Both the position numbers and the translations under genes were made by a program. A DNA stretch of 64,000 nucleotides from Flavobacteriales bacterium (GTDB lineage Bacteria; Bacteroidota; Bacteroidia; Flavobacteriales_D; Crocinitomicaceae). Location: positions 1 to 64,000 of the forward strand of contig JABXHO010000010.1 of NCBI GenBank assembly GCA_013373595.1. Reading direction: 5' to 3'. Positions 22,589 through 38,524 of this stretch are shown here, one piece after another. Numbering within the stretch: position 1 is the first letter of the stretch; each line of letters begins with the position of its first letter. A model generated the notes under the pieces. The model was given only the letters and a program-made list of their open reading frames with translations. It searched no databases and was not told the origin of the DNA.

Positions 22589-25159
22589 TTAAAAAAACGT
22601 GGACAACTCTTCAATCATCGTCAAATCACTCGAAATAATGTGATCGTAATAATTCAGATTACTCCCACTCAACTGACGCGATAAAACGGGTTCATAAGAA
22701 TCCCAATCTTGGAAAAATCCTTTCTTACCTTCGGTCTTTTTAAGAATCTGGGTATTATGTTTATCGAGAAAGGCCATGAGCTCTGCGCGGAAGTTTCCTT
22801 GTGGAAGATCACAAAACTTTCCGTCGATCACCTGCTCGACGTCGGCAATGGATATTTTGTGCGGTAACACAATGCGATTGTAGTTCAAGTGGTCATACTT
22901 CGAGGTGTAATTGCATAGAAAATCGTCCAGGTATCCTGGAATTTTATTCAAACTCAAACCTGTTTGAAGATTTGCTCCTATTGAAGACTTTTCATTCTCA
23001 TCAATAAAGAAGTCTTTCCTTCCAGTAGACTCAAGAAATTCTTCAAATAGCAATTCGGCATATCCACTTTTACTGTTGTCAATATCGAGGAACACGATGG
23101 TTTTGCCCTTGAGTAGTTTGAGGTCGTTTAGATAAAGGAACATGTCCCAGCATCCCAATATTCCACTATTGTCGATGGCGCCCGCATCGATAAAATGGCC
23201 AGAACCTTTGATCTTCGCTACAGGACTAAAAATAGGAAAGCGGTTCGTAGTCGAAACTGCTTGCAGGAAAGAGATGGAGCCATCTTTCCCGTTTTCCATT
23301 GTGAGATCCGATAAGTTTTGTGCGTATGGAAAAATTGAATCGAATGCAGGGGTGTTGATGGAGCAGAAAATTCCCCTTCGCCCATTGGTAGCAGCGGTGT
23401 TCATAATCAATGCGGGTAGCGGACGGTTTTCGGTGCTCAGTGTTTCCCAATATTTTCGATAGGTCAAATCTTGAAGGGATAGTGTGCCTTTTGCCTTCAT
23501 GTTTTCCTGATACTTCTTCATTCCGAAATAGGATCGATCACTCGAAGAGGAAAGTTGATTGAAGGGATAAAAAATACGAGCCAAGTCTAATCCAAAAAGC
23601 AAGGAGATATCCACGGAAGCATAGTTGTCATTACGAACCGTGCTGATCACGTTATTCATTTTTCTGGGGCTGTTCCCGAATTCACCGTAAATAGACCCAA
23701 ATAGAGCCAGTCCGAGTGACCCTCCCGATGCTCCAGACATGGCCACGGTTTGATTCATCAGCTTGTTATTCGACATCTCCTGTAACTTATTCAAAACCAT
23801 TAATGTCCACGTATTCGCTTTCAATCCACCTCCATGAGAAGAGATAAAGAAGACGGTATCAGGCATTTCCTGAATGCGTTGTGTGAATTCGGTTAACGAA
23901 ACGCCGTCATTTTTCATATCATCCACTTCGATCACAGCCAATTCGTTCAAATGCGACTCCGTATTCATTCCAACTATAAAGGAAATGGCTAGAACAACCA
24001 TAATGGATGTCGTGAGTTTGAAGCTGAATGAATTCAAGTGTGTCATTTCAATCCCTGCTTCTTTTTGCTTTTGCGAGATGGAATACTTTACGAAATAGTA
24101 CTTAGCCAAGTAGCTAATAATGAAAAAGTAGAAGTAGAGATAAATCATTACGATGACGATACCGTTCGGTAGCAACCAACCGTAAATGCTAGCTAAATTA
24201 AAGTAGAGAATACATACTGCACAAAAGCAGAAAGCAATCGCAAATGCTACCAAATAGTTAGATGATTTCTCAATGTTTCGAATCAGTTTGAGGAAGAAAG
24301 TGGAGTTGCGAAGTCCTTCGTTTTTTAAGGTGCGTAGAACGTGTCTCAATCGTGGACGTACCAGACGAAAGAAAGCAAAATTCAACATCATAGTGAAAAT
24401 GGTCAATAGAAGAAGGATCAGTCCACCAGGGTTGAATAAGTTGTCTTTGAAGATCACCATAATCATTAGTACGAAGGACAGAGAAGAGGAGAAGAAGTAG
24501 TAAACTCCAACACGTCTGTATATCATAGATCGGTCAGCGATACTTGAGTGTAATGGACTCAATTTACGCTTGAAGTAGGCATATGATAAAAGTGCGAATC
24601 CAGCGAAAAAAATAGAACTCCAACGAATGACTTCAATCCAAACAGGATCAAGCGAGTACTGCAGATTGGGGTAATAGGTAGAGAAGATGAAAATCGCCCA
24701 AATCATGTAAACCGAAAGTCCAAGGTATTGGCGAAGAATATTGGCGTATATATCCTTTACGTACCGCTTATCACTGATTGGTTTGTAGGTGTACACGGTC
24801 ACCCATCTCAACCATTTTTGCTTAAACGGATGCTCTTTTCTCCACGATACAAACTTACGACTGTTGTTCAGATTTCCCGCGTAATACGTATAAATGGGGT
24901 AGTGGGAAAGGCTGATTGCAAGTAAGTTGATGAGGACAAAACAAAGGAAAAGTGAAATTCTTCCTGTTTCAATCATTCTCAAAAGCATGGTAAAAGCCTG
25001 CTCCATTTGTGTAAGCAGCAGCAGAATAACCAGCAAAATAATTATGCTGAGAACAGACGCTTTGGTAAAGTTGGTAATGGAATAAAGTGCACGTAGGACG
25101 TAACGAACTCCTCCCTTCGAAGGCAGGAGTACTGGAAGTTGTCTCTTATTAGTGGTCAT
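22589..25159 (-). CDS. Membrane-anchored patatin-like phospholipase
   Basis: An 856-residue protein. The N-terminal half (~30-400) has about nine or ten hydrophobic segments in an unfamiliar membrane domain. The C-terminal half is a patatin-type hydrolase: the oxyanion loop appears in SSHGGGLKANTWT (~440), the nucleophile elbow GASGG with Ser follows about 35 residues later, and FIDAGAIDNSG supplies the catalytic Asp (D-G/A-x). It should hydrolyse phospholipid or other acyl esters at the inner membrane. Soluble patatins such as CapV are CBASS effectors, but no CD-NTase is present and the membrane domain differs. It lies 33 bp downstream of a 304-residue unknown, so the two are probably co-transcribed. 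Confidence 0.85.
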   Translation of the reverse strand: MTTNKRQLPVLLPSKGGVRYVLRALYSITNFTKASVLSIIILLVILLLLTQMEQAFTMLLRMIETGRISLFLCFVLINLLAISLSHYPIYTYYAGNLNNSRKFVSWRKEHPFKQKWLRWVTVYTYKPISDKRYVKDIYANILRQYLGLSVYMIWAIFIFSTYYPNLQYSLDPVWIEVIRWSSIFFAGFALLSYAYFKRKLSPLHSSIADRSMIYRRVGVYYFFSSSLSFVLMIMVIFKDNLFNPGGLILLLLTIFTMMLNFAFFRLVRPRLRHVLRTLKNEGLRNSTFFLKLIRNIEKSSNYLVAFAIAFCFCAVCILYFNLASIYGWLLPNGIVIVMIYLYFYFFIISYLAKYYFVKYSISQKQKEAGIEMTHLNSFSFKLTTSIMVVLAISFIVGMNTESHLNELAVIEVDDMKNDGVSLTEFTQRIQEMPDTVFFISSHGGGLKANTWTLMVLNKLQEMSNNKLMNQTVAMSGASGGSLGLALFGSIYGEFGNSPRKMNNVISTVRNDNYASVDISLLFGLDLARIFYPFNQLSSSSDRSYFGMKKYQENMKAKGTLSLQDLTYRKYWETLSTENRPLPALIMNTAATNGRRGIFCSINTPAFDSIFPYAQNLSDLTMENGKDGSISFLQAVSTTNRFPIFSPVAKIKGSGHFIDAGAIDNSGILGCWDMFLYLNDLKLLKGKTIVFLDIDNSKSGYAELLFEEFLESTGRKDFFIDENEKSSIGANLQTGLSLNKIPGYLDDFLCNYTSKYDHLNYNRIVLPHKISIADVEQVIDGKFCDLPQGNFRAELMAFLDKHNTQILKKTEGKKGFFQDWDSYEPVLSRQLSGSNLNYYDHIISSDLTMIEELSTFF

Positions 25160-25192: not shown

Positions 25193-26107
25193 TCAATCGT
25201 TCTCCTCTTCGTGTTTCGATACAACAAAAGTAATATGATTATACGGAAGTCGATCCAATGAATCGTCGTAAGGTTGAATGAGAGAGCTATCCATGTCATA
25301 GTACCAATCGGACCAACTTAGCATTTGTCGCGGCGCCTGAGCAGCAACGTATGTTCCATTTTTTAGACTAGCAACTTCTGTATTTCCAGCGAAGTCAAAG
25401 CCGAGTCCAATTTCCTGAATGATCTTGCTCTTTTTCTCGTCAATGAGGTATTGCGTAATTCCAGATGCATACCCCGTAACTTGCTTCAACACTGGATTTG
25501 CTCCAGGAATGAGTTCCAACCCTGAGGTGAAAATGCCATTTTCTAGAAAGCGTAGAAATTTTTCTTCGTTTTCATTACTGAGGTAAATTGTATTCAGATA
25601 GAAATCAATTCCGTTATTAGGAACGCGTAAGCCTTTCATGATGGATAATCCACTTTTTCCACCGCCACCTTTGTTTCGAAGGGTGTACTTTTGGGTGTAT
25701 TGAATCGTTTCGTCTTCGGCACTTCCTTCGGGAGCATGTTTTGCTTTAAATTCAAATAGAATCTCATGTTCTCCACCAAAAAATCCAGGGTAGCGCTCAA
25801 CGTAGATATTTCCAATTCGAATATTGATACGTTCACCTTTTAAACTTTTGTCGGCATCCATCGTGAGGGCATTTACAATTGGAATTTTACCGTCCTTTTC
25901 GTTTTCGACATCCAAAAAGCCGTAGGCATGCTCTTTGATTTTCCACACTTGATTGAATTGTCTATCCATTGTTTCGGAAACCAACATCTCCGCTTTTTCT
26001 GGATCTTCTTTTATGATTTGTTTGATTTCTCGGGCTCCTTCTTTATCGCCAATTTTTTTCAAGAATTTCTTCGCTTCGTTTAGGGTTAGATCTGAAATGT
26101 TATTCAT
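25193..26107 (-). CDS. Uncharacterised protein paired with the membrane patatin
   Basis: A 304-residue soluble protein (MNNISDLTLNEAKKFLKKIG) with no signal peptide. Residues 1-55 are helical and charged. The middle (~85-150) is beta-rich with a Gly stretch, NKGGGGKSG. The C-terminal part includes SWSDWYYDMDSSLIQPYDDSLD and ends acidic. I do not recognise a family; the beta region might be C2-like, but that is only an impression. It is the first gene of a likely two-gene operon with the membrane patatin, so it could regulate, activate or present substrate to that lipase. Confidence 0.75.
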   Translation of the reverse strand: MNNISDLTLNEAKKFLKKIGDKEGAREIKQIIKEDPEKAEMLVSETMDRQFNQVWKIKEHAYGFLDVENEKDGKIPIVNALTMDADKSLKGERINIRIGNIYVERYPGFFGGEHEILFEFKAKHAPEGSAEDETIQYTQKYTLRNKGGGGKSGLSIMKGLRVPNNGIDFYLNTIYLSNENEEKFLRFLENGIFTSGLELIPGANPVLKQVTGYASGITQYLIDEKKSKIIQEIGLGFDFAGNTEVASLKNGTYVAAQAPRQMLSWSDWYYDMDSSLIQPYDDSLDRLPYNHITFVVSKHEEEND

Positions 26108-26361: not shown

Positions 26362-27303
26362 ATGAGCCTGACCAAAGCATTACCACATCGACTAGGTGTC
26401 TATTTCACAGAGCGTTTTCCTGCGCTAGTTTACGCACCATTTTCCGTTATTTTATACGTCTGTTTGTCGTATCTCGTTCAGTTAATTTCGAAGGTAGAAC
26501 CTGTTTTTGATCGGTATAGTATCGCAGGGATGATTACAGCATTCTTCTTTATGCTGTTGATTCGGACGTTTGATGATATCAAGGACGTAGATTTGGATCA
26601 CGATATCTTTCCAGATCGTCCAGTGTCACGTGGAGCAGTGCTGATTCAAGATGTTTATGGCTTGGCGATTTTCAGCTTCAGTGTTTTGGTGATTGTTAAT
26701 GTTTGGTTAGCTCCAGCGAGTATTTGGGTCTTTGTTGGGGTGATGATTTACGCGCTAGGAACCTTCAAGTATTTCTTTTTTGAAGAATTGCACATTCGCA
26801 AACCGTGGGTCGCGATGATCACGCATCAACCTTTGCCATTGTCCATCATTTTTTTGTTGATCCATATTTCTTTGGCTTCGGGAGGTACGTACGAATCATT
26901 TGAAATCAACCATTTGTATCTATTATTGAGTTTTGCCTTGCCCGTTACGGCTTGGGAAGTCTCACGAAAAATTAAAGCGCCCAGTCAAGAGATTGATCGC
27001 TATGCTACATTCTCTCGTATTCTTGGACCAAAAGGTGCTTCAGCAATTCCGCTAATTCTCTATCTGATTTCGGCTGGGGCAAGCGCATTTTTAGCGCATT
27101 CACTCGATCTTCATATTGGGTATTACATTTTATTAGGGTGTTATTTGGTATTTGTCATCTTTGCATATGGACGCTTTATCGCCAAACCTATTCCGGAAAG
27201 AAATATTCTTAAAAACGTGGCAATGGCATATACCGCATTGTTCTTTTTGACTCTTTTGGTATTTGTTTTCTTAGCGTATTCTGACGTTATTTTAGGGTTA
27301 TGA
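26362..27303 (+). CDS. UbiA-family prenyltransferase-like membrane protein
   Basis: 313 residues from the ATG at 26362 (MSLTKALPHRLG); the longer ORF adds 19 unlikely residues. It has about eight or nine hydrophobic helices. The first Asp-rich motif is RTFDDIKDVDLDHDIFPDRP, which corresponds to the UbiA NDxxDxxxD motif that binds Mg-prenyl diphosphate. The second motif is weaker (APSQEIDRYATFSRILG). UbiA enzymes attach prenyl chains to aromatic rings, to haem or, in archaea (DGGGP synthase), to a glycerol-phosphate ether. The acceptor here is unknown. The stop overlaps the start of the next gene (ATGA), so the two are translationally coupled. Confidence 0.8.
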   Translation: MSLTKALPHRLGVYFTERFPALVYAPFSVILYVCLSYLVQLISKVEPVFDRYSIAGMITAFFFMLLIRTFDDIKDVDLDHDIFPDRPVSRGAVLIQDVYGLAIFSFSVLVIVNVWLAPASIWVFVGVMIYALGTFKYFFFEELHIRKPWVAMITHQPLPLSIIFLLIHISLASGGTYESFEINHLYLLLSFALPVTAWEVSRKIKAPSQEIDRYATFSRILGPKGASAIPLILYLISAGASAFLAHSLDLHIGYYILLGCYLVFVIFAYGRFIAKPIPERNILKNVAMAYTALFFLTLLVFVFLAYSDVILGL

Positions 27304-29918
27304 ATACCATTCTTTCAAACGATGAGCATATTCATCGAATGAGCCGCATTGAACTTGGGGGGAAAGGAGCTTACCTTGCTGAGTTGATCAAGTCTGGATT
27401 TAATGTTCCTCCTTTTTTTGTGATTACCAGTGAATTGTTTCACAAGATGACGAAACATTTGTCGTCGCAGATCTCGGAACTGATGGAGTCGGGAGCGTCT
27501 GAACAGGTGTCGCTTTTGGAGAAAATTCAGGAATCGATAGTGTCGTATTCGTTCAGCAAAGAAGATGAAAACGAAATTTTGGCCCAACTCGATCAAATTC
27601 TTGAAAATGATGGAGCTCATGTATCAGTGCGTTCGTCGGGAGGAGCAGAAGATGGTGAATCGACTTCGTTTGCAGGACAGCACGAAACATTTCTATACGT
27701 TTCTCGGGGTGAACTACTGGATAAAATCAAGCATTGCATGGCATCGGCATGGAGTCCGAGTGTGGTGGCGTATCGAATGAAGCAAGGAGTTGGCTTGTAC
27801 AACATGAATTTTGCTGTCATTGTGCAGAGAATGATTCACGCAAAAACTGCGGGGATTGCGTTTTCAATGAACCCATCAGGGAATTTAGCAGATGCAATTA
27901 TCGTTGCGGGATATGGAGCTGGAGAGGGAATTGTTTCCGATAAGGTGGAGTCGGATGCATATGTGGTCAACCGTCAGAGTCAAATTGTTTCGAAAGAAAT
28001 TCAGACTAAAAACCATCGCATGATGTTTCACCCATCAGAAGGATTGGTACGAGAGAAGGTTCCGAAGGAATTGGTGGATCTTTCGGCTTTATCTGATGAG
28101 CAAATTCGAGAGGTATACGAAGAGGTGATGAAAGCGGAGAGTTTACTCGAAGATATTGCGGATATTGAGTTTTGTTTTGATGAGGAAGGCTGCTGGATTT
28201 TGCAAATGCGTCCTGTTACGACGATCAACTTGAAGAAAATTGCTATCCTCGACAATACGAATATTGTAGAAAGCTATCCGGGAATCAGTTTGCCTTTAAC
28301 GTTCTCATTTGCGCGTTATGCGTATGAACATGCGTTCAAAGGAGCGGCAAAAGCATTTTGGATGCCCAAACGAGAACAGGAATTGGCGTCGTCGATGTTT
28401 GAACACCTGCTGGGCTATCATCAAAACCGAATTTTCTATCGACTCGACAATTGGTACAAAATGATTTCCCTCGTATTCAGCTCCAAAAAGTCGATGGAAT
28501 CGTGGGAGAAAGCAGTGGGCTTGAAACGTCCGCCAGGCAATGAGTTGTCTCTTTCCTTTGGAAACAAACTAAAAGTATATGCGTCAACGCTTTGGCGAGT
28601 TTTGAACTACAAGCGGGGGAACCGAATGTTTTTTCAATTGTTTGGGAAGCATTACGGTGAACTTCGGGCAATTGATTTAACGGAATTAAACTTGATTCAA
28701 TTGAGTACAACGCTCGATCAATACGCAGCGACATTTTTTCAGTTTTGGTACTTAACGCTCATCAATGATTTGATGACCTTTAAAAGCTTTGACTGGGTGC
28801 AAAAAGGGATTGAGCGAAGAAAGATAGAATCGAAGGATTTAGCCAATGATCTCATTGCTGGAATGTATCAATCTGAATCGGAATTGGCCATTGTAGAGGT
28901 GCTCAAGTTGAAGGATGAAATTGCTCAGAGTGATGAATTATCGGCTCTTTTCAAAAGAAATACGGACGAAGTGTGGGAAGCTTTGCTTTCGGATGAATTC
29001 AAGGATTTCTCGGAAAGCGTTCGGAAATACATTGATCGTTTTGGGGACCGAACCTTGGCTGAGTTGAAGTTAGAAAAGGCATCTTTTCGTCATGAACCAC
29101 ATGGATTTATCGAGTTGCTCAAAGGACAGTTGCGCTCCGAAGAATCCTACGGCATGTACCAAGAAAAACAAAAAATACGACGTTTAGCATCGGATGGTTT
29201 GATGAAGAAAGCATTTCAATGGTGGAATCCACGATCGTACTTTTTTCGTTATTCAGTTCGAATGGCGGCGTACGGAACCTACAGTCGCGAGAATATGCGT
29301 TTCTGTCGCACCCGAATCTACGGAGCGGTAAAAGATATTTATTGGGAAATCGGAAAACGATTGACAGAAAAGCAATTGATTGCTGCACCTGAGGATATTT
29401 TCTACTTAACGAGTGATGAGGTCAGAGCGGTGTGCGGAAAGCCAATCAATTCGTTGCAGGAAATCGTACAAAGCAGGAAGGAGGAGTGTGAAGTGAATGC
29501 AAAAGCAAAGCTTCCTGATCGGATTATTTATGAACGAACTCCGCCCGTTTTTCGATCCAAACAGTCGTTAAGAGAAGAAAGTACATCGACATTAACGGGA
29601 ATTCCCGTTTCCAAAGGAATCATTCAGGCGGAGGCAATGGTGATTACCGAACCAAGCTACGACCTGAATGTGAAGGGCAAAATACTGATCACCGAAATTA
29701 CCGATCCCGGTTGGGTATTTTTGATGTCGCAAGCGAGTGGTTTGGTGAGCGAAAAGGGATCACTTTTGTCGCATACGGCCATTGTTGGGCGCGAAATGGG
29801 CATTCCAGTCGTGGTGAGCGTCGCAGAAATAACTTCACGCATCCAATCAGGTGATATCATCAAAATTGACGGGCAGCAAGGTACTGTCGAAATTATCCAA
29901 CGGAAAGACGCAATTTAA
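27300..29918 (+). CDS. PEP-synthase-like ATP-grasp/phosphohistidine-domain protein (copy 1)
   Basis: An 872-residue protein. It has an N-terminal PPDK-type ATP-grasp domain (GGKGAYLAELIKSGFNVPPFF near residue 20; VSVRSSGGAEDGESTSFAGQ near 105; LQMRPVTT near 300), a long helical linker, and a C-terminal swivelling domain with the phosphorylatable His825 in GSLLSHTAIVGREMGIP. A PEP/pyruvate-binding TIM barrel is absent, so it is not a true PEP synthase. The layout matches rifampin phosphotransferase and the prodiginine/tambjamine condensing enzymes PigC/TamQ, which use ATP for a phosphoryl-dependent reaction. It is coupled to the UbiA gene. Its stop overlaps the stop of a convergent paralogue. 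Confidence 0.87.
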   Translation: MNTILSNDEHIHRMSRIELGGKGAYLAELIKSGFNVPPFFVITSELFHKMTKHLSSQISELMESGASEQVSLLEKIQESIVSYSFSKEDENEILAQLDQILENDGAHVSVRSSGGAEDGESTSFAGQHETFLYVSRGELLDKIKHCMASAWSPSVVAYRMKQGVGLYNMNFAVIVQRMIHAKTAGIAFSMNPSGNLADAIIVAGYGAGEGIVSDKVESDAYVVNRQSQIVSKEIQTKNHRMMFHPSEGLVREKVPKELVDLSALSDEQIREVYEEVMKAESLLEDIADIEFCFDEEGCWILQMRPVTTINLKKIAILDNTNIVESYPGISLPLTFSFARYAYEHAFKGAAKAFWMPKREQELASSMFEHLLGYHQNRIFYRLDNWYKMISLVFSSKKSMESWEKAVGLKRPPGNELSLSFGNKLKVYASTLWRVLNYKRGNRMFFQLFGKHYGELRAIDLTELNLIQLSTTLDQYAATFFQFWYLTLINDLMTFKSFDWVQKGIERRKIESKDLANDLIAGMYQSESELAIVEVLKLKDEIAQSDELSALFKRNTDEVWEALLSDEFKDFSESVRKYIDRFGDRTLAELKLEKASFRHEPHGFIELLKGQLRSEESYGMYQEKQKIRRLASDGLMKKAFQWWNPRSYFFRYSVRMAAYGTYSRENMRFCRTRIYGAVKDIYWEIGKRLTEKQLIAAPEDIFYLTSDEVRAVCGKPINSLQEIVQSRKEECEVNAKAKLPDRIIYERTPPVFRSKQSLREESTSTLTGIPVSKGIIQAEAMVITEPSYDLNVKGKILITEITDPGWVFLMSQASGLVSEKGSLLSHTAIVGREMGIPVVVSVAEITSRIQSGDIIKIDGQQGTVEIIQRKDAI

Positions 29919-32377
29919 TTGAGTAATTCAATAGAACCGTCCGATCCGTTCATCCGTAAGCGATCTCCCGTTTTTATGAGTTCAAGTGCATCTGGAACAG
30001 CCAAAATTGCAGGGATTCCATATTCTCGCGAAATGATGGCGCCGTGGGATAACATGCCTCCCGTTTCGGTAATCAGTCCATTGATTTTAGCAAAGTAAAC
30101 TGTCCATGCTGGATCGGTAAACTTCGTGACCATGATCATTCCTTCCGGCATTTTCTCAGCATCACTTACTGATCGTGCCACGTAGGCTTCTCCTTCAATT
30201 TGTCCACTGGAGCAGGCAATTCCATGAAGTAATTTACTTGATTTGAAAGATTTTTTCGAAACCATTCCTTGTTCCACCCAAATCTCGTTCGGACGGTCAA
30301 AATTTCGGAAACTGGTATGAATAATTTTGTTCTTTCGAATCGTTTCCAAATGAGCGGTTTTTCCTTCAAACAATTCCAAAATTTCCTCAGGAAAGAGAAA
30401 GAAGATATCTTCCACTTCGCTTACCGTATTTTCGCGCTGCATGCGCAAGCCAATTTCCCAAAAGATGTTGCGTATGATTCCATACATTTGGCTCGATCGA
30501 TCACGAAACTCTTCTCGTAACCATAGCAATTTTCGGTGATTGGTGATTTCTTTTTGCAAGCGTTTGGAGTGAACTTTTGACATTTCATTCTGAAATACCT
30601 TGTGCTGTTCTTCGTTTTGTCGAATGATGCTTTCGTCGTCCTCCTTAGTTAAAAAGTTGCAGAGCGTAGCGAAGGCCTGCATGGGTTGTTGGTCCCAGTT
30701 GGGAACCAGAATTTGGAGTTCCTTCTCACTTTTGTAGCTGTACGTTTGCAAAATCTCGAAAATCTCTTTTCTAAAAGGCATTTCCTGTTCACTTTGATAG
30801 AAATCACACAATTCTGCAGCCGATTTTTCCAGAAAGAAGGTTCGATCATTCGAATTACGAATTGCTCGACTCAAATTCCACAAAGCATAACTCGGACGGA
30901 GGTGCGAAATGTTTTGAAGTCCTGTGATGAGGTTCAAATATTTGATGGAACCTGATCGGTTTTTCTTCTCCAAGTATTCTTTGAAAAGAGTCGTATTGTT
31001 CGAATTCGTGTAAATGATTTCAAAATACGTTCCTTCCACACGAATAAAGTCTTCCTCAATCAGTTTTCGGGCGGTTACAATCAGTTCATTCTTCGATAGT
31101 TCCTTGGGTGCTAAACGTCGATAATGCGCCAATATTTCTTCCAATCGATTCAGCTCGGCATTCGCATTTTTAAGTTTTTGCTTGATCGACTTTTTCAGTG
31201 CCAAAAGCACTTGCAAACCATTTACGATACTTTTCAGGTTGGTTTTTGTGACATGTCCTTTTCCTTCATATTGAGGACGTACACCCAAATCATTATCAAA
31301 TTCGCGCTCTACGAAACCAGGGATTTTCTTCACACCGTCTTTCACCGCACTTAGATTCCAGTAGGAGTACAGCATAAACTGCGTAAACCATTTTTCGGGC
31401 ATATAATTCGGGTGAATATTCACAGATTTCAAGTAAGGTGACATTGTATTTTCAAATGCACGCTCGTAGAGCGAATACATAAATGGCGTAGCAATTTCGG
31501 AGGAAATCCCTCCATCTTTCAAATCAGCATTTGTCCAATCATACTTCGTATTGAAACGAATAGCAGTCATCGGACGGGCTTGTAAAATGTATAATTTGTG
31601 ATCTTTCAGCGCCCATTCAATATCAACAGGATAACCATAAAGTTGTTGTATGTCGAGCGCTTGTCTCACGATTTCTTGAATCGAAGTTTCGTCTAAAGAA
31701 GAGATATCAATCTGGTTCAACTGTGTAATGACATCGTTGTACCAATTCACGCGGTATGAACTCGGTGTAGCCGTTCCTTGTACCAAATTTTCGCCCAAGC
31801 CATTGATACTTTCGATTAAGATTTCTTTTTCATTTCCTGTAAGCGGATTTACCGTAAAACAAACACCAGCATGCTCAGGATTCACCATTTCCTGCACGAT
31901 TAAATTGACGCGTAGGAGATTACAATCGATGTGGTGGTTGTGGCAATAGGTTAGTGCTGTTTCGTCATAGGTCGAAAGAATGCATTCGAGAATTGCTCCC
32001 GCAAATTCATCAAAATTACTTACGTTCAGAATGGTTGTGAATTGCCCTGCGAAAGATAGAACTGATCCATCTTCTAAATTCACCGAACTTCGAACAGCAA
32101 CTTTGGTATTGCTTGGAAAAAAATCTTTGTAGTACGACCATGCATTCTCGATGAGCGGCGTAAACTGCTCGCTGCATGTCTCCACAAAAACGCGCTTTTC
32201 CGTGGCGGGCATTTCTACATTCTGCGTGAAGGAAATAAAGACGTTCTCAACCTCGGGTGAGGGAATAACGAAACCATTGGGGACGTTAAGGCCTGCTTTG
32301 AACAAGGTCGCAAGACTGTTTGCTTTTCCGCCGTAATTTCCTTCTGGTAATTGATCAAATGAATAAATTCTGGACAT
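29915..32377 (-). CDS. PEP-synthase-like ATP-grasp/phosphohistidine-domain protein (copy 2)
   Basis: An 820-residue paralogue of the facing gene with the same order: ATP-grasp (GGKANSLATLFKAGLNVPNGF near residue 16; VAVRSSVNLEDGSVLSFAGQ near 105; LQARPMTA near 275), helical linker with a shared WEIGLRMQRE region, and C-terminal domain with His778 in GGMLSHGAIISREYGIP. The two copies share motifs but are clearly diverged, so they probably act on different substrates or steps. It is the last gene of a four-gene operon (methyltransferase, aminotransferase-reductase, CarS-like, this gene), 10 bp after the CarS-like gene. Confidence 0.87.
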   Translation of the reverse strand: MSRIYSFDQLPEGNYGGKANSLATLFKAGLNVPNGFVIPSPEVENVFISFTQNVEMPATEKRVFVETCSEQFTPLIENAWSYYKDFFPSNTKVAVRSSVNLEDGSVLSFAGQFTTILNVSNFDEFAGAILECILSTYDETALTYCHNHHIDCNLLRVNLIVQEMVNPEHAGVCFTVNPLTGNEKEILIESINGLGENLVQGTATPSSYRVNWYNDVITQLNQIDISSLDETSIQEIVRQALDIQQLYGYPVDIEWALKDHKLYILQARPMTAIRFNTKYDWTNADLKDGGISSEIATPFMYSLYERAFENTMSPYLKSVNIHPNYMPEKWFTQFMLYSYWNLSAVKDGVKKIPGFVEREFDNDLGVRPQYEGKGHVTKTNLKSIVNGLQVLLALKKSIKQKLKNANAELNRLEEILAHYRRLAPKELSKNELIVTARKLIEEDFIRVEGTYFEIIYTNSNNTTLFKEYLEKKNRSGSIKYLNLITGLQNISHLRPSYALWNLSRAIRNSNDRTFFLEKSAAELCDFYQSEQEMPFRKEIFEILQTYSYKSEKELQILVPNWDQQPMQAFATLCNFLTKEDDESIIRQNEEQHKVFQNEMSKVHSKRLQKEITNHRKLLWLREEFRDRSSQMYGIIRNIFWEIGLRMQRENTVSEVEDIFFLFPEEILELFEGKTAHLETIRKNKIIHTSFRNFDRPNEIWVEQGMVSKKSFKSSKLLHGIACSSGQIEGEAYVARSVSDAEKMPEGMIMVTKFTDPAWTVYFAKINGLITETGGMLSHGAIISREYGIPAILAVPDALELIKTGDRLRMNGSDGSIELLN

Positions 32378-32387
32378 GTGTGCTTGG

Positions 32388-32954
32388 TTAAAATGGTTCT
32401 TTGCGTAGGCGTAGTAAGTACAAGAGATAGTTTATCCCAAGGTGAAGAAAACCGTAGAAAAGAATTCCAAACCAGAAATGTTTTAATGTGAAATTTGAAA
32501 ATAAGAGAAGTAGAAGTGTAAGGGTAATAACCGAATCGAGTTGGTCAATCATTCGCTGAATAAAGGAGGTTGATTTCCCTTCGGAAATGCCCATTTGCCG
32601 CTTAAAAAAGCTATTCGGGAGCTCTCCAATAACGTAACCGACTCCGTATAAAACACCATAAAACACAGGTGAGAAACGGTTAAAATCGAGGAGGTTTAAG
32701 TTGGATAGAGCCGAAACTTGTTCAATGATCCACTTGTAGAGATATGTGAAAGCAATGGAAGCGATAATCATCACGATGATGCCACGGTAGGTTTTGTTGT
32801 CACCGAAAATCCGATGCGACCGAAACGTAGCGTAATGATCGAGCGGGTAGGTCGCAAATTTGAGCCAATTGTATCGAACCACCACCATGTGGAAGATGGC
32901 CGCCAAAATAACAGGCGAGGCAACCAGGAGCAATTCTAGTATGAGTTCGATCAT
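32388..32954 (-). CDS. CDP-archaeol synthase (CarS)-like membrane protein
   Basis: A 188-residue protein with about five hydrophobic helices. It carries the three conserved CarS blocks: GDNKTYRGI (residues ~51-59; the archaeal form is GDxKTWRG), GELPNSFFKRQMGISEGKST (~110-130; archaeal GDLxxSFxKRR) and DQLDSVI (~137). Archaeal CarS uses CTP to activate an unsaturated archaetidic acid. In this bacterium the substrate could be a phosphatidic, ether or prenyl phosphate. The protein starts 9 bp after the fusion enzyme and is followed 10 bp later by the ATP-grasp gene. A CDP-alcohol phosphatidyltransferase that could use its product lies about 3.5 kb away. Confidence 0.8.
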   Translation of the reverse strand: MIELILELLLVASPVILAAIFHMVVVRYNWLKFATYPLDHYATFRSHRIFGDNKTYRGIIVMIIASIAFTYLYKWIIEQVSALSNLNLLDFNRFSPVFYGVLYGVGYVIGELPNSFFKRQMGISEGKSTSFIQRMIDQLDSVITLTLLLLLFSNFTLKHFWFGILFYGFLHLGINYLLYLLRLRKEPF

Positions 32955-32963
32955 TATGAGCGT

Positions 32964-35825
32964 TTAAAATATCGTTTCAAGTTTATTTTTTTTGAGTTTG
33001 AAACCGTGTTTCGCTCCCAGTTGATTCATATAGTGGACCTGAGAAGGATGCAAGTTTCCGAAGGAAAAGTTACACAGCTTTTCTTCAAGTCCTAGTAAAA
33101 TGGTTTCGGAAATGCAGGCAAAGGCTTCTCCTTTTCCAAGCGGGTAGGCACGCATGGTAATGGTTTGTTCGTAGGGAAGTTCAACCACTCCACCCATGAT
33201 TACTTTGATGTTTCGCTTGTTCTGAATCAATTCGTCCGTACTATTGATGGGAACGGAAATGTCGTAAACAATCGAATTGTCTGCAAAATAGGGACTGTAC
33301 AAGAATGGATCAGGGTGATTGGTTGCTACCACAGTCACATCGCACTGCACCAATTCCTCCAGAGAGTCGATTACTTGAAATGGAAAGCGGTCACCAAGTT
33401 CATTCGTGAGTTGTTCAGAAAGAGACAGATCGCTTAGGGCGAGTTCTCCCGATTTTAACCGTTTATATGTCTTCGAATTCGCAAAAAGATCATACGCTTT
33501 TGCATGAATCGCAGAAGATCTTGCGTTCGGGTTCGTGATCATTTCAGAAAAAATATAACTAATCAGTTCTCGAAGAAATCGAAGTGTTTTCAATTTGCCA
33601 CCTTTTGAATCGCTTCCTTTCAAGACCATGTTCGAAAAGTAGGGTAGAAAGCACTTCACGTAGGTAGAACAAATGTTTCCTGCCGCACCGAGTACGCCCA
33701 AGGTGAGTGATGCTCCCGACTTAATCGTTGCGGAAATCTCTTCTTTGATTGCTTGAACGCCAATACCTACGGTATAACTGTTTCCTGTTGTTATGAATAC
33801 GTTGGGATTTCGAATCGATTTCCCATTTTTAGTGATCACGGATGAATATTGCCCCAACCCAACTAGTGGACAGCCAAATTCCTCGTGAAGGAAATCAACC
33901 GCGTCATTGCAAAGATCCGCATAATGCGTGTACAGATTCTTGTTCATCATTTCGCGTGCCATCGAAGCAGTAAAGAGCATTCCTGCGAAGTAGGTATTTA
34001 CAGATTTTCCTGAACTTCCTTCCATTTTTCGGGCATGCACTAGAATGGGCGTCGCTATTTCAAGAACAGATTCAAGTAGTGCGTTGATGGTTTCATCGGA
34101 CAATACTTCCATGCTTGGATCGCCATCTTTTGCGCCGTTCTCATTGATGTAGTGCGAAATAAATCCAACCGACTGATTTATATTTTCATCGATTTCGATA
34201 ATCACATTGTTTTGACCGAAATCCGTTACGGCACGGAGGTTTTGTTCTGCTTTTGGCAACAAGTGTTCGATCAATTTGTAGAAATCACGGCAGTAGATAA
34301 TATGCGCAAGTGCTTTCAATGCCGTTTGAAAATGAGTCAACTCTTCCTCCGAGACAAAAATACATGGAAGTACACGCAATGTGTTTGGATCAGAGAGTGT
34401 TGGGGCAATCCGAATGTTCCATTGATTCAACAAGTAAGAACAATACAGATAATTCAAATAGCCGGAACGAGAGAACATCTGAAAACTGTAATTCTCACTA
34501 AAGTTGAGGTCGAAAAATTCAATTCCCCATAGTAATCCTGCACCGCGGACTTCTTTCACAACTTGCGGGTAATCACGCTGAACACGTTGCAAACAAGACT
34601 CAATTTGTTTTCCTTTTGAACGTATTGTTTCCCTTTCGGCCTTCGAAATTTGGAGTGCTTTCAATGAAATTTCTGCAGAATAGGAATCGTCCGAATAAGT
34701 GGACGTATGTACCACTCCAAATCCTTCGTGATAGTGCTTTTCGTCAATCACGAGTGCTGCATTTTTCACCATTCCTCCGCCAAATGATTTACTGAAGAGA
34801 TAATAGTCAGCGTAAATTTCAGCTTGGAGTGAATGCGCGAAAGTTCCTGTTCGAAACGATCCACATTGAATTTCATCGAAGATGAGTGGGATGTTTACGT
34901 TTCGTGTTCGTTCTCGCAAAAATGTAAGCAGTTCGTTTGAAACAGGACGAATTCCACCTTCTCCTTGAATCGGCTCAACAATTACGCCCAAACACATCAA
35001 AACCGATGATTCTTCGAATGAAATGGTTCCGTTTGTCAACTTTGGAAAGCGTACAGTTCGAAACAAGGAAAGTAAGGTCGATTCGAATGGGGCCGTGTTT
35101 GGTTCCACAAAAACGACGTGTGATTTTTCCCGATCATTCGTTTGAAATCCATCCCGAAATTGAGGATTGGATGTTAAATTCAGCGCCCCCGTTGTTTTTC
35201 CATGAAACGAATGTTCGAGCGCCAGTAGCACTGGAGAAGTTTCGTTGAATACTGCGTGAAAGTGTTCAATGCAGAAATTTTTGAAGGAGATGAAATCATC
35301 AAATGTCTGATCGTTCGCTTGAGCAACGAAGGGCTGTTCACTTGTGGCAAAAAAATGATTGATTGCGTGCAATTCTCGATGCAATCGATCCAATAATTTG
35401 TCCTTGTTTTTACTAAAGTTGAGTCGAGCATGTTTGATGGCCGCTTCAACTGCTTCTGCACCCGAATTAGCGAAGGTTGTGATGTAGTTTTTGCTGGAAT
35501 GGTGTCCAATTTCCCCTGAAATAAATCGAGCCAGAGCTTCCACTGAAGGCTTCGAAGCCAGTTGAGTGTGGTTGGGAACCTGATTGCTGATCAGTTCAAT
35601 GGCTTTTTGCTTCAGTTCTGGATGATGATGTCCGAGTAGCAAAGATCCATATCCTCCGATATAATCACTTACGCGAATTTCTTTCCCTTCTTCATCTAAA
35701 TAAAACAGTCCACCGCCTTCTCCACGGATAAAATCTTTGTCGAGTAACAGCGTGCGTAGCAAGCGATCCAGTTTTGGACGAGTATGAGTGCCTGACGCTT
35801 GATATGTGTTCAACTGTTCCTTCAA
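32964..35825 (-). CDS. Fusion of class III aminotransferase with acyl-ACP reductase-like domain
   Basis: A 953-residue protein. Residues ~30-510 are a PLP fold-type I class III aminotransferase: SGAEAVEAAIKHAR (121-134), VEPIQGEGG (283-291), FDEIQCG (316-322), and the PLP lysine Lys346 in FSKSFGGGM. Residues ~530-953 resemble cyanobacterial long-chain acyl-ACP reductase: TTGNSYTVGI (679-688), Rossmann loop VLGAAGNICS (711-720), FACISETILLGLE with Cys904 at the position I recall as the acyl-thioester Cys, and the terminal NFSFG...LGAKHGF. The second half should reduce a fatty acyl thioester to the aldehyde and the first should aminate it, giving a long-chain amine. It lies 3 bp after the methyltransferase gene. 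Confidence 0.85.
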   Translation of the reverse strand: MKEQLNTYQASGTHTRPKLDRLLRTLLLDKDFIRGEGGGLFYLDEEGKEIRVSDYIGGYGSLLLGHHHPELKQKAIELISNQVPNHTQLASKPSVEALARFISGEIGHHSSKNYITTFANSGAEAVEAAIKHARLNFSKNKDKLLDRLHRELHAINHFFATSEQPFVAQANDQTFDDFISFKNFCIEHFHAVFNETSPVLLALEHSFHGKTTGALNLTSNPQFRDGFQTNDREKSHVVFVEPNTAPFESTLLSLFRTVRFPKLTNGTISFEESSVLMCLGVIVEPIQGEGGIRPVSNELLTFLRERTRNVNIPLIFDEIQCGSFRTGTFAHSLQAEIYADYYLFSKSFGGGMVKNAALVIDEKHYHEGFGVVHTSTYSDDSYSAEISLKALQISKAERETIRSKGKQIESCLQRVQRDYPQVVKEVRGAGLLWGIEFFDLNFSENYSFQMFSRSGYLNYLYCSYLLNQWNIRIAPTLSDPNTLRVLPCIFVSEEELTHFQTALKALAHIIYCRDFYKLIEHLLPKAEQNLRAVTDFGQNNVIIEIDENINQSVGFISHYINENGAKDGDPSMEVLSDETINALLESVLEIATPILVHARKMEGSSGKSVNTYFAGMLFTASMAREMMNKNLYTHYADLCNDAVDFLHEEFGCPLVGLGQYSSVITKNGKSIRNPNVFITTGNSYTVGIGVQAIKEEISATIKSGASLTLGVLGAAGNICSTYVKCFLPYFSNMVLKGSDSKGGKLKTLRFLRELISYIFSEMITNPNARSSAIHAKAYDLFANSKTYKRLKSGELALSDLSLSEQLTNELGDRFPFQVIDSLEELVQCDVTVVATNHPDPFLYSPYFADNSIVYDISVPINSTDELIQNKRNIKVIMGGVVELPYEQTITMRAYPLGKGEAFACISETILLGLEEKLCNFSFGNLHPSQVHYMNQLGAKHGFKLKKNKLETIF

Positions 35826-35828
35826 AGC

Positions 35829-36497
35829 TTAATATATAAATGGAATTAAGCGGCGCGATGACTTGCAATAATCGAGGTATTCCTTCCCAAAGTGATCGGC
35901 CAAAAATGATTCCTCCTTTGGAATCCGCATGGCAACAGCAAAGAGTGGTCCTACAATCAAAATGAGCAAACTGATATAATTGTGCATCACCAATCCCAAT
36001 CCAACATAGTAGAGTAGAAGTCCCGAATAACTGGGATGCCGCACCCATTTGTAGATGCCTTCTTTCATTAATTGTTGGTCCTTCATAATTGTTACATTCA
36101 CCTGAAATGAGCGCCCTAAACTGTAAATGGCATACCATCGCGTGATTAATCCTACAGCCACGAGCGTGTATCCAACGTAGATTCCTCGATTGAGACCTAG
36201 ATCTCCCCAGTGTAAAAAGTAGACGAGTACGCTTGCAATTAAAGACAAGGGCACAGCCACACGGAAAATTAATAAGGTTTTGTCCGTAGCGACTTTTAAC
36301 TTGTCGTGGTCGTCCGATTTTCGTTGAAAGTTTACATAAACTCCTGAGAGAATGATCGTAAGACTAATCGCAAGAATTGAAAAATCAATATAATTCATCA
36401 GTGATAGGACAAAAAAATGAGTATTCAGCAAGTTAGCAGCAAGTAGAATGAAAACCCATCGTAGACTTAAATTTAGTATTTTTAGATTGAAAACCAT
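35829..36497 (-). CDS. ICMT/PEMT-type membrane methyltransferase
   Basis: 222 residues from ATG 36497; a start at 36398 (MNYIDFSILAIS) is also possible and would leave room for a divergent promoter. It has about five or six helices and the conserved C-terminal block: EGIYKWVRHPSYSGLLL, then RIPKEESFLADHFGKEYLDYC, ending RLIPFIY. This is the SAM-binding core of isoprenylcysteine carboxyl methyltransferases and phospholipid methyltransferases. It could methylate an isoprenoid acid, a phospholipid amine or, given the next gene, a long-chain amine. It is the first gene of the four-gene operon. Only 9 bp separate this start from the divergent CDP-alcohol transferase start. Confidence 0.85.
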   Translation of the reverse strand: MVFNLKILNLSLRWVFILLAANLLNTHFFVLSLMNYIDFSILAISLTIILSGVYVNFQRKSDDHDKLKVATDKTLLIFRVAVPLSLIASVLVYFLHWGDLGLNRGIYVGYTLVAVGLITRWYAIYSLGRSFQVNVTIMKDQQLMKEGIYKWVRHPSYSGLLLYYVGLGLVMHNYISLLILIVGPLFAVAMRIPKEESFLADHFGKEYLDYCKSSRRLIPFIY

Positions 36498-36506
36498 GAA
36501 AAAAGA

Positions 36507-37076
36507 ATGTCCATACCACTAAATATTCCAAACATTCTATCGATTTATCGTTTGCTCATGTTTCCCGTGATCGCGTGGATTGCCATTCAAGGTGAAGAAC
36601 GTCTCTTTTTTTGGTTGCTTTTGGTCAATTTTATTACGGATATTTTGGATGGTTTAATTGCCCGAACTTTCAACCTTCAAACCAAAATTGGAGCAAAAAT
36701 TGACTCCATTGCTGATTTTGGAACCTATTTACTTGTGTTCTTAGGAATTTACCTCTTCAAAACAGCAGATTTCGTGCCGCACATTGTTTCCTTTTCGATT
36801 TTCATTGGATTATTTCTGTTTGCGCATGTCCTAGCTTTACTAAAGTTCGGTCGAATGCCCAGTTTTCATCTGTATTCGTGGAAAATTGGCGGTTACATTC
36901 AGGGCATTTTCTTCATCGTGTTGTTTTCCTATGGATTCATCACCGCGTTCTATTATTTCATGTTGATTTGGGGAATTCTGGCCTTTCTTGAGCACATCAC
37001 AATCCAATTGATGATTTCTGAAATGATTTCCAATGCGAAAGGCTTGTATTGGGTGATGAAAGCGCGGAAAAACTAA
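36507..37076 (+). CDS. CDP-alcohol phosphatidyltransferase
   Basis: A 189-residue protein with about six helices and the complete family motif D-x2-DG-x2-AR-x8-G-x3-D-x3-D, seen as DILDGLIARTFNLQTKIGAKIDSIAD (from residue ~44; quoted in part for the two halves DILDGLIAR and GAKIDSIAD). Enzymes of this family replace CMP in a CDP-activated lipid with an alcohol such as glycerol phosphate, serine or inositol phosphate. Which alcohol is used cannot be told. It sits alone on the plus strand between the divergent methyltransferase operon and the convergent amidase, with whose stop its own stop overlaps (CTAA). It may act after the CarS-like enzyme. Confidence 0.88.
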   Translation: MSIPLNIPNILSIYRLLMFPVIAWIAIQGEERLFFWLLLVNFITDILDGLIARTFNLQTKIGAKIDSIADFGTYLLVFLGIYLFKTADFVPHIVSFSIFIGLFLFAHVLALLKFGRMPSFHLYSWKIGGYIQGIFFIVLFSYGFITAFYYFMLIWGILAFLEHITIQLMISEMISNAKGLYWVMKARKN

Positions 37077-38524
37077 ATCTCTGGTGCTCCAATCGATGGA
37101 ATAAGCTTATCCAATTGCGAGGCAAGTTCTAATAAATCGAAATCACGGTGTTTTTTTCCTACAAGTTGAACTCCAATAGGGAGCTGCTTTTTCGAAAGTG
37201 CGATGGGTAAAGTGAGCACAGGAGATTCCAACACGTTGAAAGGAAGCGCATAACTTTGCGTAGCAATGGCATAATGAATCTCCTTCTCATTGACGTTGAG
37301 AGGAGTGGTGTAGATCCCAAGGTGTCCAAGACTTCGATCTGGCGATTGATGCGGAAAGGCCAACACGGAAGACGTAGGAAGAATGAGTGCATCGTATTCG
37401 TTCATGAGCTTTTCAAATTGTTGCTTCACTTCTTCGTGCCTGTGTCGAACGCGTCGGTATTTTTCTCGACTGATCGGTTTCAACAAATCCGTGTACATTG
37501 GAATTTTGGCATACTTCGGCTTCATGATGAGGTTTCCTGCATACCGAGCAATAACAGGAAGTTCCTTGCCTGTTTCATAATTGGAAAGATGTCCCCACAG
37601 TCGAAGGGTTTCGTTGAAGTCAAATTGCTCTTCGGAATAATCATCAATTCGGATTCCTGATTCCGCGAGCTTTTCTCTGAGTTGAGTCATTGCCGTTTTG
37701 ATTGCACGATCGACTTCCAATCCCTTGAGTTCACTAATCCACAGCAGTTTGATCGGGGAAGAGGAAGGGGGACTTTTTGAAGGTGGAAGAAGCTTTTTTG
37801 TTCCAATGATGTTCAGCGCTGCGTGTACATCCTCCACTGAATTCCCGAGTATTCCTGCCGATAGCAGTGTTCGCATACTCAAGGGGTGTGCTTTCTTTTG
37901 GAGTTGCGTCACGATTCCATTTGTGCTGATTCCATCGAGTGATGCTTTGAAACCGTAGACTCCGCAAAAGTGGGCAGGAATTCGGATCGATCCACCAGAA
38001 TCGTTGCCAAAGGATAAAATGGAAATTCTTGCGGCCACGGATGCTGCACAACCACCGCTACTTCCTCCGGGTGTGTGATCAATATTCCACGGATTATTGG
38101 TGCGTCCAAAGAGTTTATTGTTCGTTTGCAGGTCGTAAGTAAGTGCTGGAAGGTTGGTTTTTCCAATGATGATTGCTCCAGCTTTTTTCAGTTGCTCAAC
38201 GATTTCAGCATCGACCTCAGAAATGTTGTTTCGAAACGGCTGGAATCCCGCTGTTGTGGGCAGTCCTTTTACTTCGATATTGTCCTTGATCGTTACAGGA
38301 ATTCCGTGCAATAATCCGCGTATTTTCCCTTTTGAAATGTCAGAATCGGCCTGTTTCGCTGCGTTTAGGGCATTTTCCGTGTTCACCAATACTAGTGCAT
38401 TGAGTATAGGGTTGAGTTCTTCCAATCGGCTAAGCGCGGCTTCCACAAGTTCAAGAGAAGTGAGTTCTCCTTTTGTTAGAAGCGCGTGAAGTTCACGAAG
38501 GGAATAGGAACAGTAATTTGACAT
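37073..38524 (-). CDS. Amidase-signature family hydrolase
   Basis: 483 residues from the ATG at 38524 (MSNYCSYSLRELHALL); the longer ORF only adds a poor leader. The Ser-cisSer-Lys triad is present: Lys in HGIPVTIKDNIEVKG, cis-Ser in PGGSSGGCAASVAA, nucleophile Ser in GNDSGGSIRIPAHFCG. No signal peptide or membrane anchor is seen. The family includes fatty-acid amide hydrolases, 6-aminohexanoate-dimer hydrolase and GatA; no GatB/C lies nearby and substrate-loop residues differ, so GatA is unlikely. Next to a long-chain-amine enzyme, an amide of such an amine is a plausible substrate, but this is inference. Confidence 0.88.
   Translation of the reverse strand: MSNYCSYSLRELHALLTKGELTSLELVEAALSRLEELNPILNALVLVNTENALNAAKQADSDISKGKIRGLLHGIPVTIKDNIEVKGLPTTAGFQPFRNNISEVDAEIVEQLKKAGAIIIGKTNLPALTYDLQTNNKLFGRTNNPWNIDHTPGGSSGGCAASVAARISILSFGNDSGGSIRIPAHFCGVYGFKASLDGISTNGIVTQLQKKAHPLSMRTLLSAGILGNSVEDVHAALNIIGTKKLLPPSKSPPSSSPIKLLWISELKGLEVDRAIKTAMTQLREKLAESGIRIDDYSEEQFDFNETLRLWGHLSNYETGKELPVIARYAGNLIMKPKYAKIPMYTDLLKPISREKYRRVRHRHEEVKQQFEKLMNEYDALILPTSSVLAFPHQSPDRSLGHLGIYTTPLNVNEKEIHYAIATQSYALPFNVLESPVLTLPIALSKKQLPIGVQLVGKKHRDFDLLELASQLDKLIPSIGAPEI

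What the first reader, a model, noticed from the sequence alone, without database searches (positions are those of the whole stretch)
26362..38524. Compact eight-gene cluster for an unrecognised lipid or alkylamine pathway
Seen: UbiA-like, ATP-grasp/His-domain protein 1, ATP-grasp/His-domain protein 2, CarS-like, aminotransferase-acyl reductase fusion, ICMT/PEMT methyltransferase, CDP-alcohol phosphatidyltransferase and amidase. Junctions are -4, -4, 10, 9, 3, 9 and -4 bp, so there is virtually no spacer although the strand changes three times. Known: the families cover prenyl transfer, CTP activation of a lipid phosphate, head-group exchange, acyl reduction/amination and methylation. UbiA, CarS and CDP-alcohol transferase are also the last steps of archaeal ether-lipid synthesis. 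PigC/TamQ-type enzymes with the ATP-grasp/His architecture condense aldehydes with pyrroles or fatty amines. Inference: the cluster makes an unusual amine-containing or ether-type membrane lipid, or a fatty-amine conjugate. No GGGP synthase or prenyl reductase is in the window.
Basis: partly seen in the sequence, partly recalled or inferred. Interest (0 to 1): 0.9.

Follow-up and report, generated by a model that had tools for sequence, protein, structure and literature searches.

The report
Fatty-amine lipid pathway gene cluster
Eight tightly packed genes in an uncultured Fluviicola-like bacterium form one unit, conserved in two relatives and deleted in a third, that probably makes an unknown fatty-amine-containing lipid, and its core pair of enzymes recurs in dozens of other bacteria beside lipid-making genes, pointing to an undescribed family of lipid pathways.

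Summary
The eight genes are real and intact. Order and strands are as described; the one error is the ICMT start, so the divergent spacer is about 108 bp, not 9. The exact eight-gene order occurs in two other Fluviicola genomes at 62-92% identity. A fourth carries only a deletion scar: a UbiA fragment abutting an amidase fragment. That marks the cluster as one unit. The aminotransferase-reductase is a TamH-type fusion (transaminase, then acyl-ACP-reductase-like domain) with its catalytic residues kept, so it probably makes alkylamines.

The UbiA-like protein belongs to a distinct subfamily whose second Asp motif is replaced by ExxRK...E. Its partner PPDK-like gene lies beside it, or within 2 kb on the same strand, in 34 of 34 readable loci. 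Most of those loci are a different cluster: HMGR-like, UbiA, PPDK, BtaA-like, kinase-like, GNAT, AMP ligase. In several of them the same CDP-alcohol transferase and CarS- or CdsA-like genes join in.

The window is a rare variant of this apparently undescribed lipid-cluster family. The lipid-pathway idea is supported, the archaeal-ether-lipid and PigC readings are not, and the product is unknown.

The parts
26362..27303 (+). UbiA-like membrane transferase of a distinct subfamily (motif 1 RTFDDIKDVDLD kept; motif 2 EVSRKIKAPSQE in place of DxxxD)
27300..29918 (+). PPDKa: ATP-grasp + swivelling-His (PEP-synthase-like) enzyme, the constant partner of this UbiA subfamily; VRSS and SHTAIVGRE motifs intact
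29915..32377 (-). PPDKb: second, deeply divergent ATP-grasp/His enzyme; Rph/PpsA-like swivel signature (TETGGMLSHGAIISRE), own branch in the tree
32388..32954 (-). CarS-like CTP:lipid-phosphate cytidylyltransferase (NKTYRG and DQLD motifs kept)
32964..35825 (-). TamH-type fusion: class III aminotransferase (N; PLP Lys346) + acyl-ACP-reductase-like thioester reductase (C; GAAGNIC, Cys904)
   Evidence: PMC9594044
35829..36398 (-). ICMT/PEMT-family membrane methyltransferase (start corrected from 36497 to about 36398)
36399..36506 (.). divergent intergenic region, 108 bp, probable shared promoter; equivalent 105-107 bp spacers in both relatives with a conserved CTTAAATTTA(C/G)TATTTTTA block
36507..37076 (+). 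CDP-alcohol phosphatidyltransferase, full D..DG..AR-8-G...D...D motif; best-conserved protein of the cluster (90-91% in relatives)
37073..38524 (-). amidase-signature hydrolase (TIKDN, GGSSGG, DSGGSIR motifs kept)

Best explanation
The eight genes are one biosynthetic unit for an amine-bearing amphiphilic lipid. It is a rare variant of a wider, apparently undescribed family of lipid clusters built on a non-canonical UbiA-like transferase plus a dedicated PPDK-type phosphotransferase. Proposed route: (1) the TamH-type fusion reduces an acyl thioester to the aldehyde and transaminates it to an alkylamine (shown at family, architecture and catalytic-residue level; substrate inferred). (2) PPDKa and PPDKb use ATP through a phospho-His to activate a hydroxyl or phosphate of a second building block (inferred from the family and from the constant UbiA pairing). 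(3) The UbiA-like protein joins the activated chain to its acceptor in the membrane, as an O- or N-alkyl/prenyl bond (inferred). (4) The CarS-like enzyme makes a CDP-lipid and the CDP-alcohol transferase exchanges CMP for a polar alcohol (family-level; the pairing of a CDP-alcohol transferase with a cytidylyltransferase recurs in sister clusters). (5) The ICMT/PEMT protein methylates the amine or an acid group, and the amidase trims or recycles an amide (both inferred, weakest).
For: Same eight-gene order in two congeners at 62-92% identity. Deletion scar in a third with UbiA and amidase fragments abutting, between patatin-like and ABC-transporter neighbours that also flank the intact cluster in relatives. 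CDP-alcohol transferase orthologue absent from congeners without the cluster. UbiA subfamily: 36 intact copies all keep R..D[DE].[KR]D...D and E..RK......E. The PPDK gene adjoins or nearly adjoins UbiA on the same strand in 34 of 34 readable loci. Window PPDKa lies in the UbiA-linked clade. All 28 loci with a complete neighbourhood carry a thioester reductase (HMGR-like, FAR or the TamH-type fusion), a second candidate phosphotransferase (K, DAGK or PPDKb) and an amine-introducing enzyme (BtaA-like or the transaminase). A CDP-alcohol transferase sits beside a CdsA-like or CarS gene inside five such clusters, CarS 52% identical to the window's in one. Fusion architecture and catalytic Lys/Cys as in PtTamH, shown to make C7-C14 amines (PMC9594044).
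Against: No product is known for any of these clusters. The role of PPDKb, ICMT and amidase is guesswork. The K protein of the sister clusters is only a weak cytidylyltransferase/dolichol-kinase-like match (17 bits, below cut-off), so the 'second phosphotransferase' rule is soft. An alkylamine cannot itself be the UbiA donor, so the meeting point of the two branches is unproven. A non-lipid natural product is not excluded.
Confidence: 0.55

Rival explanations
1. The cluster makes a diffusible natural product or signal (tambjamine/prodiginine-like fatty-amine conjugate, or an autoregulator), not a membrane lipid.
For: A TamH-type or PigE-type fusion and a PPDK enzyme co-occur in tambjamine/prodiginine clusters (PMC9594044). 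PPDKs of the window's clade sit with AfsA and ICMT in Streptomyces clusters. Distribution is patchy (2 of 33 congeners) and the cluster can be lost, as for accessory metabolites.
Against: No bipyrrole, PKS, NRPS, exporter or regulator gene in the cluster. PPDKs are outside the PigC clade. CarS-like and CDP-alcohol transferase families act on lipid phosphates, and sister clusters carry BtaA-like, PSD or DAGK genes.
Confidence: 0.25
2. A bacterial archaeal-type ether phospholipid pathway: GGGP synthase (elsewhere in the genome), UbiA as DGGGP synthase, CarS, CDP-alcohol transferase.
For: PcrB/GGGPS homologue at G000:C174:58872-59522. DGGGPS is among the closest solved relatives by profile and by fold. 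CarS-like and CDP-alcohol transferase present. Bacteroidetes GGGPS homologues have in vitro activity (stated in PMC7852524).
Against: PcrB is core in the order, 51 of 60, with or without the cluster. The UbiA second Asp motif is replaced by K and E in all 36 copies. CarS and UbiA score far below equivalog cut-offs. It leaves the fusion, two PPDKs, ICMT and amidase unexplained.
Confidence: 0.12
3. Several independent operons that happen to be packed together (UbiA-PPDKa; PPDKb-CarS-fusion-ICMT; CDP-alcohol transferase; amidase), with no common product.
For: Three strand changes; amidase has no counterpart in sister clusters.
Against: Whole block conserved in order and strand in three species and removed as one block in G022. 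UbiA, PPDK and CDP-alcohol transferase recur together in other cluster types, with ICMT (L134) or CarS (L132).
Confidence: 0.05

Closest known systems
Tambjamine YP1 tail enzymes of Pseudoalteromonas tunicata (PtTamH; PMC9594044)
   Same: Same di-domain order (N transaminase, C AAR-like thioester reductase), near-equal length (953 against 941 aa), PLP Lys and catalytic Cys kept; an ATP-grasp/His enzyme (TamQ, from general knowledge) belongs to the same kind of cluster.
   Different: No TamA (adenylation-ACP) and no bipyrrole genes; PPDKs not in the PigC clade; lipid cytidylyltransferase, CDP-alcohol transferase and UbiA added.
Prodigiosin PigE / PigC (PMC8341465; reference clusters L076, L079, L080)
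   Same: Reductase + transaminase chemistry; ATP-grasp/His enzyme.
   Different: PigE has the reverse domain order; the tree separates both window PPDKs from PigC.
Archaeal ether phospholipid pathway (GGGPS, DGGGPS, CarS, archaetidyl transferases)
   Same: UbiA, CarS-like and CDP-alcohol transferase families.
   Different: Non-canonical UbiA motif 2, GGGPS unlinked and core, extra amine-forming and phosphotransferase genes.
HMGR-like / UbiA / PPDK / BtaA-like / K / GNAT / AMP-ligase clusters of Bacteroidota and Roseinatronobacter sp. S2 (found here; no description found in the papers searched)
   Same: UbiA subfamily, PPDKa clade, and in several loci the CDP-alcohol transferase with CarS- or CdsA-like gene.
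   Different: Window lacks HMGR-like, BtaA-like, K, GNAT and ligase; has TamH-type fusion, PPDKb, ICMT and amidase instead.

Membership tests
TamH-type transaminase-thioester reductase | N-terminal class III aminotransferase with PLP Lys, C-terminal AAR-like domain | tested here: met
   Aminotran_3 36-503, AAR/PigE match in the C-terminal 419 aa, Lys346
TamH-type transaminase-thioester reductase | nucleotide motif and catalytic Cys of AAR | tested here: met
   GAAGNIC at 713 (PigE also has Cys at the third position), FACISE Cys904 aligned with AAR FACFAE
TamH-type transaminase-thioester reductase | converts acyl-ACP to alkylamine | not testable with these tools
   needs enzyme assay
PigC/TamQ condensing enzymes | phylogenetic grouping with PigC | tested here: not met
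   PPDKa in UbiA-linked clade (100/98), PPDKb separate long branch; PigC apart; TamQ itself not available
PPDK/PEP-synthase superfamily | ATP-grasp motif and swivelling catalytic His | tested here: met
   VRSS...ED, Q.RP and SH.A...RE.GIP in both
UbiA superfamily | first Asp-rich motif | tested here: met
   RTFDDIKDVDLD aligns with NDIFDIEID of DGGGPS
UbiA superfamily | second Asp-rich motif DxxxD | tested here: not met
   E..RK......E in 36 of 36 subfamily members
UbiA superfamily | UbiA fold | tested here: inconclusive
   model pLDDT 54; top PDB fold matches are UbiA 4od4 and DGGGPS 6m31/7bpu, TM 0.41-0.56
Archaeal ether-lipid pathway | GGGP synthase linked to or co-distributed with UbiA/CarS | tested here: not met
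   PcrB in 51 of 60 relatives regardless of the cluster
CarS (CDP-archaeol synthase) | family membership PF01864 | tested here: met
   61 bits against cut-off 22
CarS (CDP-archaeol synthase) | equivalog-level score | tested here: not met
   79.8 bits against cut-off 148
CDP-alcohol phosphatidyltransferases | D..DG..AR-8-G...D...D motif | tested here: met
   DILDGLIARTFNLQTKIGAKIDSIAD at residue 45
ICMT/PEMT methyltransferases | RHPxYxG motif and Pfam score over cut-off | tested here: met
Amidase signature family | Ser-cisSer-Lys motif blocks | tested here: met
   TIKDN, GGSSGG, DSGGSIR

The most novel reading that the evidence does not exclude
The UbiA-PPDK pair defines a new way of building membrane lipids: a PPDK-type enzyme makes the activated alkyl (not necessarily isoprenoid) phosphate or diphosphate from a reduced acyl chain, and a UbiA with a re-wired second metal motif transfers it, giving a new class of ether- or N-alkyl-linked aminolipids. 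The window cluster makes an alkylamine phospholipid member.
Probability: 0.3. Interest if true: 0.92.

Novelty: new variant of a known kind. Interest (0 to 1): 0.75.

Why it matters
If right, an unseen class of bacterial aminolipids is encoded in about one in twelve of the Flavobacteriales-order genomes sampled and in other bacteria, with an unexplored chemistry (a UbiA-type transferase coupled to a PEP-synthase-like kinase). It gives concrete genes for orphan aminolipids or ether lipids in Bacteroidota, and a defined set for heterologous expression.

Tried and rejected
PigC/TamQ membership of the PPDKs: rejected by two trees. Archaeal ether-lipid pathway: weakened. Patatin-like gene 22589-25159 and the 304-aa gene 25193-26107 as cluster members: rejected for the patatin-like gene, which occurs in relatives without the cluster (G022, G005, G009, G025); the 304-aa gene is missing beside the cluster in G032. 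Homology of CarS with the K membrane protein of sister clusters: not supported by profile comparison. Horizontal island by composition: G+C of cluster 0.422 against window 0.410, no signal. Plasmid copies of the UbiA or CarS: none at protein level with the window queries. AlphaFold model of UbiA: low confidence, used only as weak support. Literature for a UbiA-PPDK-BtaA cluster: nothing found in the open library. Requests that failed: laying the genome in the box, an out-of-frame PDB query, a search centred on a non-genome handle.

Full report
WHAT IS THERE. The window lies in G000:C103, a 4.69-Mb genome of a Fluviicola-like flavobacterium; relatives carrying the same genes are records named Fluviicola sp. 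NORP8 and an uncultured Flavobacteriales bacterium. The eight ORFs are intact at the stated coordinates and their family assignments hold, with two refinements. The UbiA protein is recognised only remotely (no Pfam match; NF010118 at 98 bits against a cut-off of 443). The ICMT gene starts near 36398 rather than 36497, because homology to both relatives begins at about Met34. The supposed 9-bp divergent junction is therefore a 108-bp promoter-sized region; it is 105-107 bp in the relatives and shares a conserved AT-rich block.

IT IS ONE UNIT. Two of 33 congeneric genomes (G028, G032) have the same eight genes in the same order and orientation at 62-92% protein identity. The reductase domain is otherwise absent from the 395 other Bacteroidota genomes sampled, and a scan of named species genomes found only the same two. 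In a fourth congener, G022, the place between the patatin-like and 304-aa genes and an ABC-transporter gene holds only the first half of UbiA abutting the first 66 residues of the amidase. The ABC neighbour is of the kind found beside the amidase in G028 and G032. The cluster was thus present and was deleted as a block whose ends are the two terminal genes. Base composition is that of the surroundings.

THE FUSION. Residues 36-503 are a class III aminotransferase, with CrmG as best solved relative. The C-terminal 419 residues match the reductase part of PigE and the cyanobacterial acyl-ACP reductase. PLP Lys346, GAAGNIC and Cys904 are kept. The domain order equals PtTamH, whose transaminase makes C7-C14 amines and which with PtTamA turns C12 acid into C12 amine through the acyl-ACP (PMC9594044), and is the reverse of PigE (PMC8341465). 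Distant fusions of this order occur in Photobacterium, Rhodobacterales and Paraburkholderia without the other genes of this cluster, apart from a distant ICMT and amidase match in Paraburkholderia.

THE UbiA-PPDK CORE. Searching Bacteroidota and then the order with the UbiA profile found 36 intact subfamily members in all, the window and one Roseinatronobacter plasmid included. All keep a first motif R..D[DE].[KR]D...D. In all, the second Asp-rich motif of UbiA enzymes is replaced by E..RK......E. In all 34 loci whose contig extends far enough, a PPDK-type gene lies beside it or within 2 kb on the same strand. The window's PPDKa falls in the clade of these partners, with two Streptomyces PPDKs that sit beside AfsA and ICMT, and apart from PigC, Rph and PpsA. 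PPDKb forms its own long branch.

SISTER CLUSTERS. The usual setting is HMGR-like > UbiA > PPDK > BtaA-like (DUF3419) > a membrane protein K > GNAT > (SRPBCC) > AMP ligase. The HMGR-like protein scores 307 bits against an equivalog cut-off of 442. Fluviicola genomes without a standard cluster mostly lack any HMGR, and those tested that have it carry only the cluster copy, which argues against a housekeeping mevalonate role. Five such clusters contain a CDP-alcohol transferase 45-58% identical to the window's. It stands beside a CdsA-like gene in four and beside a CarS 52% identical to the window's in one, L132. L134, from the same family, has UbiA, PPDK, a desaturase, ICMT and CDP-alcohol transferase, with the closest UbiA and PPDK to the window's outside its own species group (41% and 43%). 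All 28 loci with a complete neighbourhood carry a thioester reductase (HMGR-like, FAR or the TamH-type fusion), a second candidate phosphotransferase (K, DAGK or PPDKb) and an amine-introducing enzyme (BtaA-like or the transaminase); the other eight lie on contigs that end inside the cluster. The K assignment is weak and this rule should be read with that caution.

MECHANISM. Shown at family and residue level: acyl thioester to alkylamine capacity, two intact ATP/His phosphotransferases, a CDP-lipid synthase-like enzyme, a CDP-alcohol transferase with full motif, a membrane methyltransferase, an amidase. Inferred: PPDKa (and PPDKb) activate a building block that the UbiA-like protein transfers, and the lipid phosphate so formed is charged with CMP and given a polar head. 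Where the alkylamine joins is open: as the nucleophile for UbiA, or as an amide or head group. The amine cannot be the UbiA donor itself.

ALTERNATIVES. A tambjamine-like or autoregulator-like metabolite remains possible (TamH logic; AfsA-ICMT-PPDK clusters). The archaeal ether-lipid reading loses support. The GGGP-synthase homologue is elsewhere in the genome and is core in the order, 51 of 60, the UbiA lacks the second Asp motif, and CarS is below its equivalog cut-off. Chance packing is excluded by conservation and by the block deletion.

LIMITS.

Noticed in passing
L116-L133, L056-L061 (e.g. L057:2118-11668): Widespread HMGR-like/UbiA/PPDK/BtaA-like/K/GNAT/AMP-ligase cluster, apparently undescribed; in the Fluviicola genomes tested the cluster HMGR is the only HMGR of the genome.
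   Followed up: partly
L061 and L062 (Roseinatronobacter sp. S2 plasmid unnamed3): The same standard cluster on an alphaproteobacterial plasmid; its HMGR-like gene runs across the record start and is missing from the PLSDB gene table.
   Followed up: yes
L077:4669-9423 and L078:7345-11742: Streptomyces plasmids with AfsA-like, ICMT and a PPDK of the UbiA-linked clade next to each other, possibly autoregulator synthesis.
   Followed up: partly
L039:9850-23954 and L042:13603-21011: TamH-order transaminase-reductase fusions beside LolA-like and MMPL genes (with ACP and ketosynthases in Photobacterium), probably amine-ended fatty or polyketide products.
   Followed up: no
L040:14440-21103: Paraburkholderia phymatum megaplasmid: ACP-like domain fused in front of a transaminase-reductase, with P450 and ICMT genes nearby.
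   Followed up: no
L135:9748-10601: Deletion scar of the cluster in Fluviicola G022: UbiA 5' half abutting an amidase 5' fragment, between intact neighbours.
   Followed up: yes
G000:C174:58872-59522 (L065): PcrB/GGGP-synthase homologue, core in the order (51 of 60 genomes), with no linked UbiA partner seen here.
   Followed up: partly
G032:C220:2141-3217 and G589:C29:10369-11451: A second, more distant type of HMGR in much longer open frames (645 and 773 aa) in genomes lacking the standard cluster.
   Followed up: no
window 22589-25159: Patatin-like membrane protein (GGGLKAN...GASGGS and DAGA blocks, by eye) with no Pfam or NCBIfam match; strain-variable in Fluviicola.
   Followed up: partly
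window 36399-36506: Divergent promoter region with an AT-rich block conserved in three species; the upstream ATG used by the CDP-alcohol transferase in relatives is out of frame in the window.
   Followed up: partly
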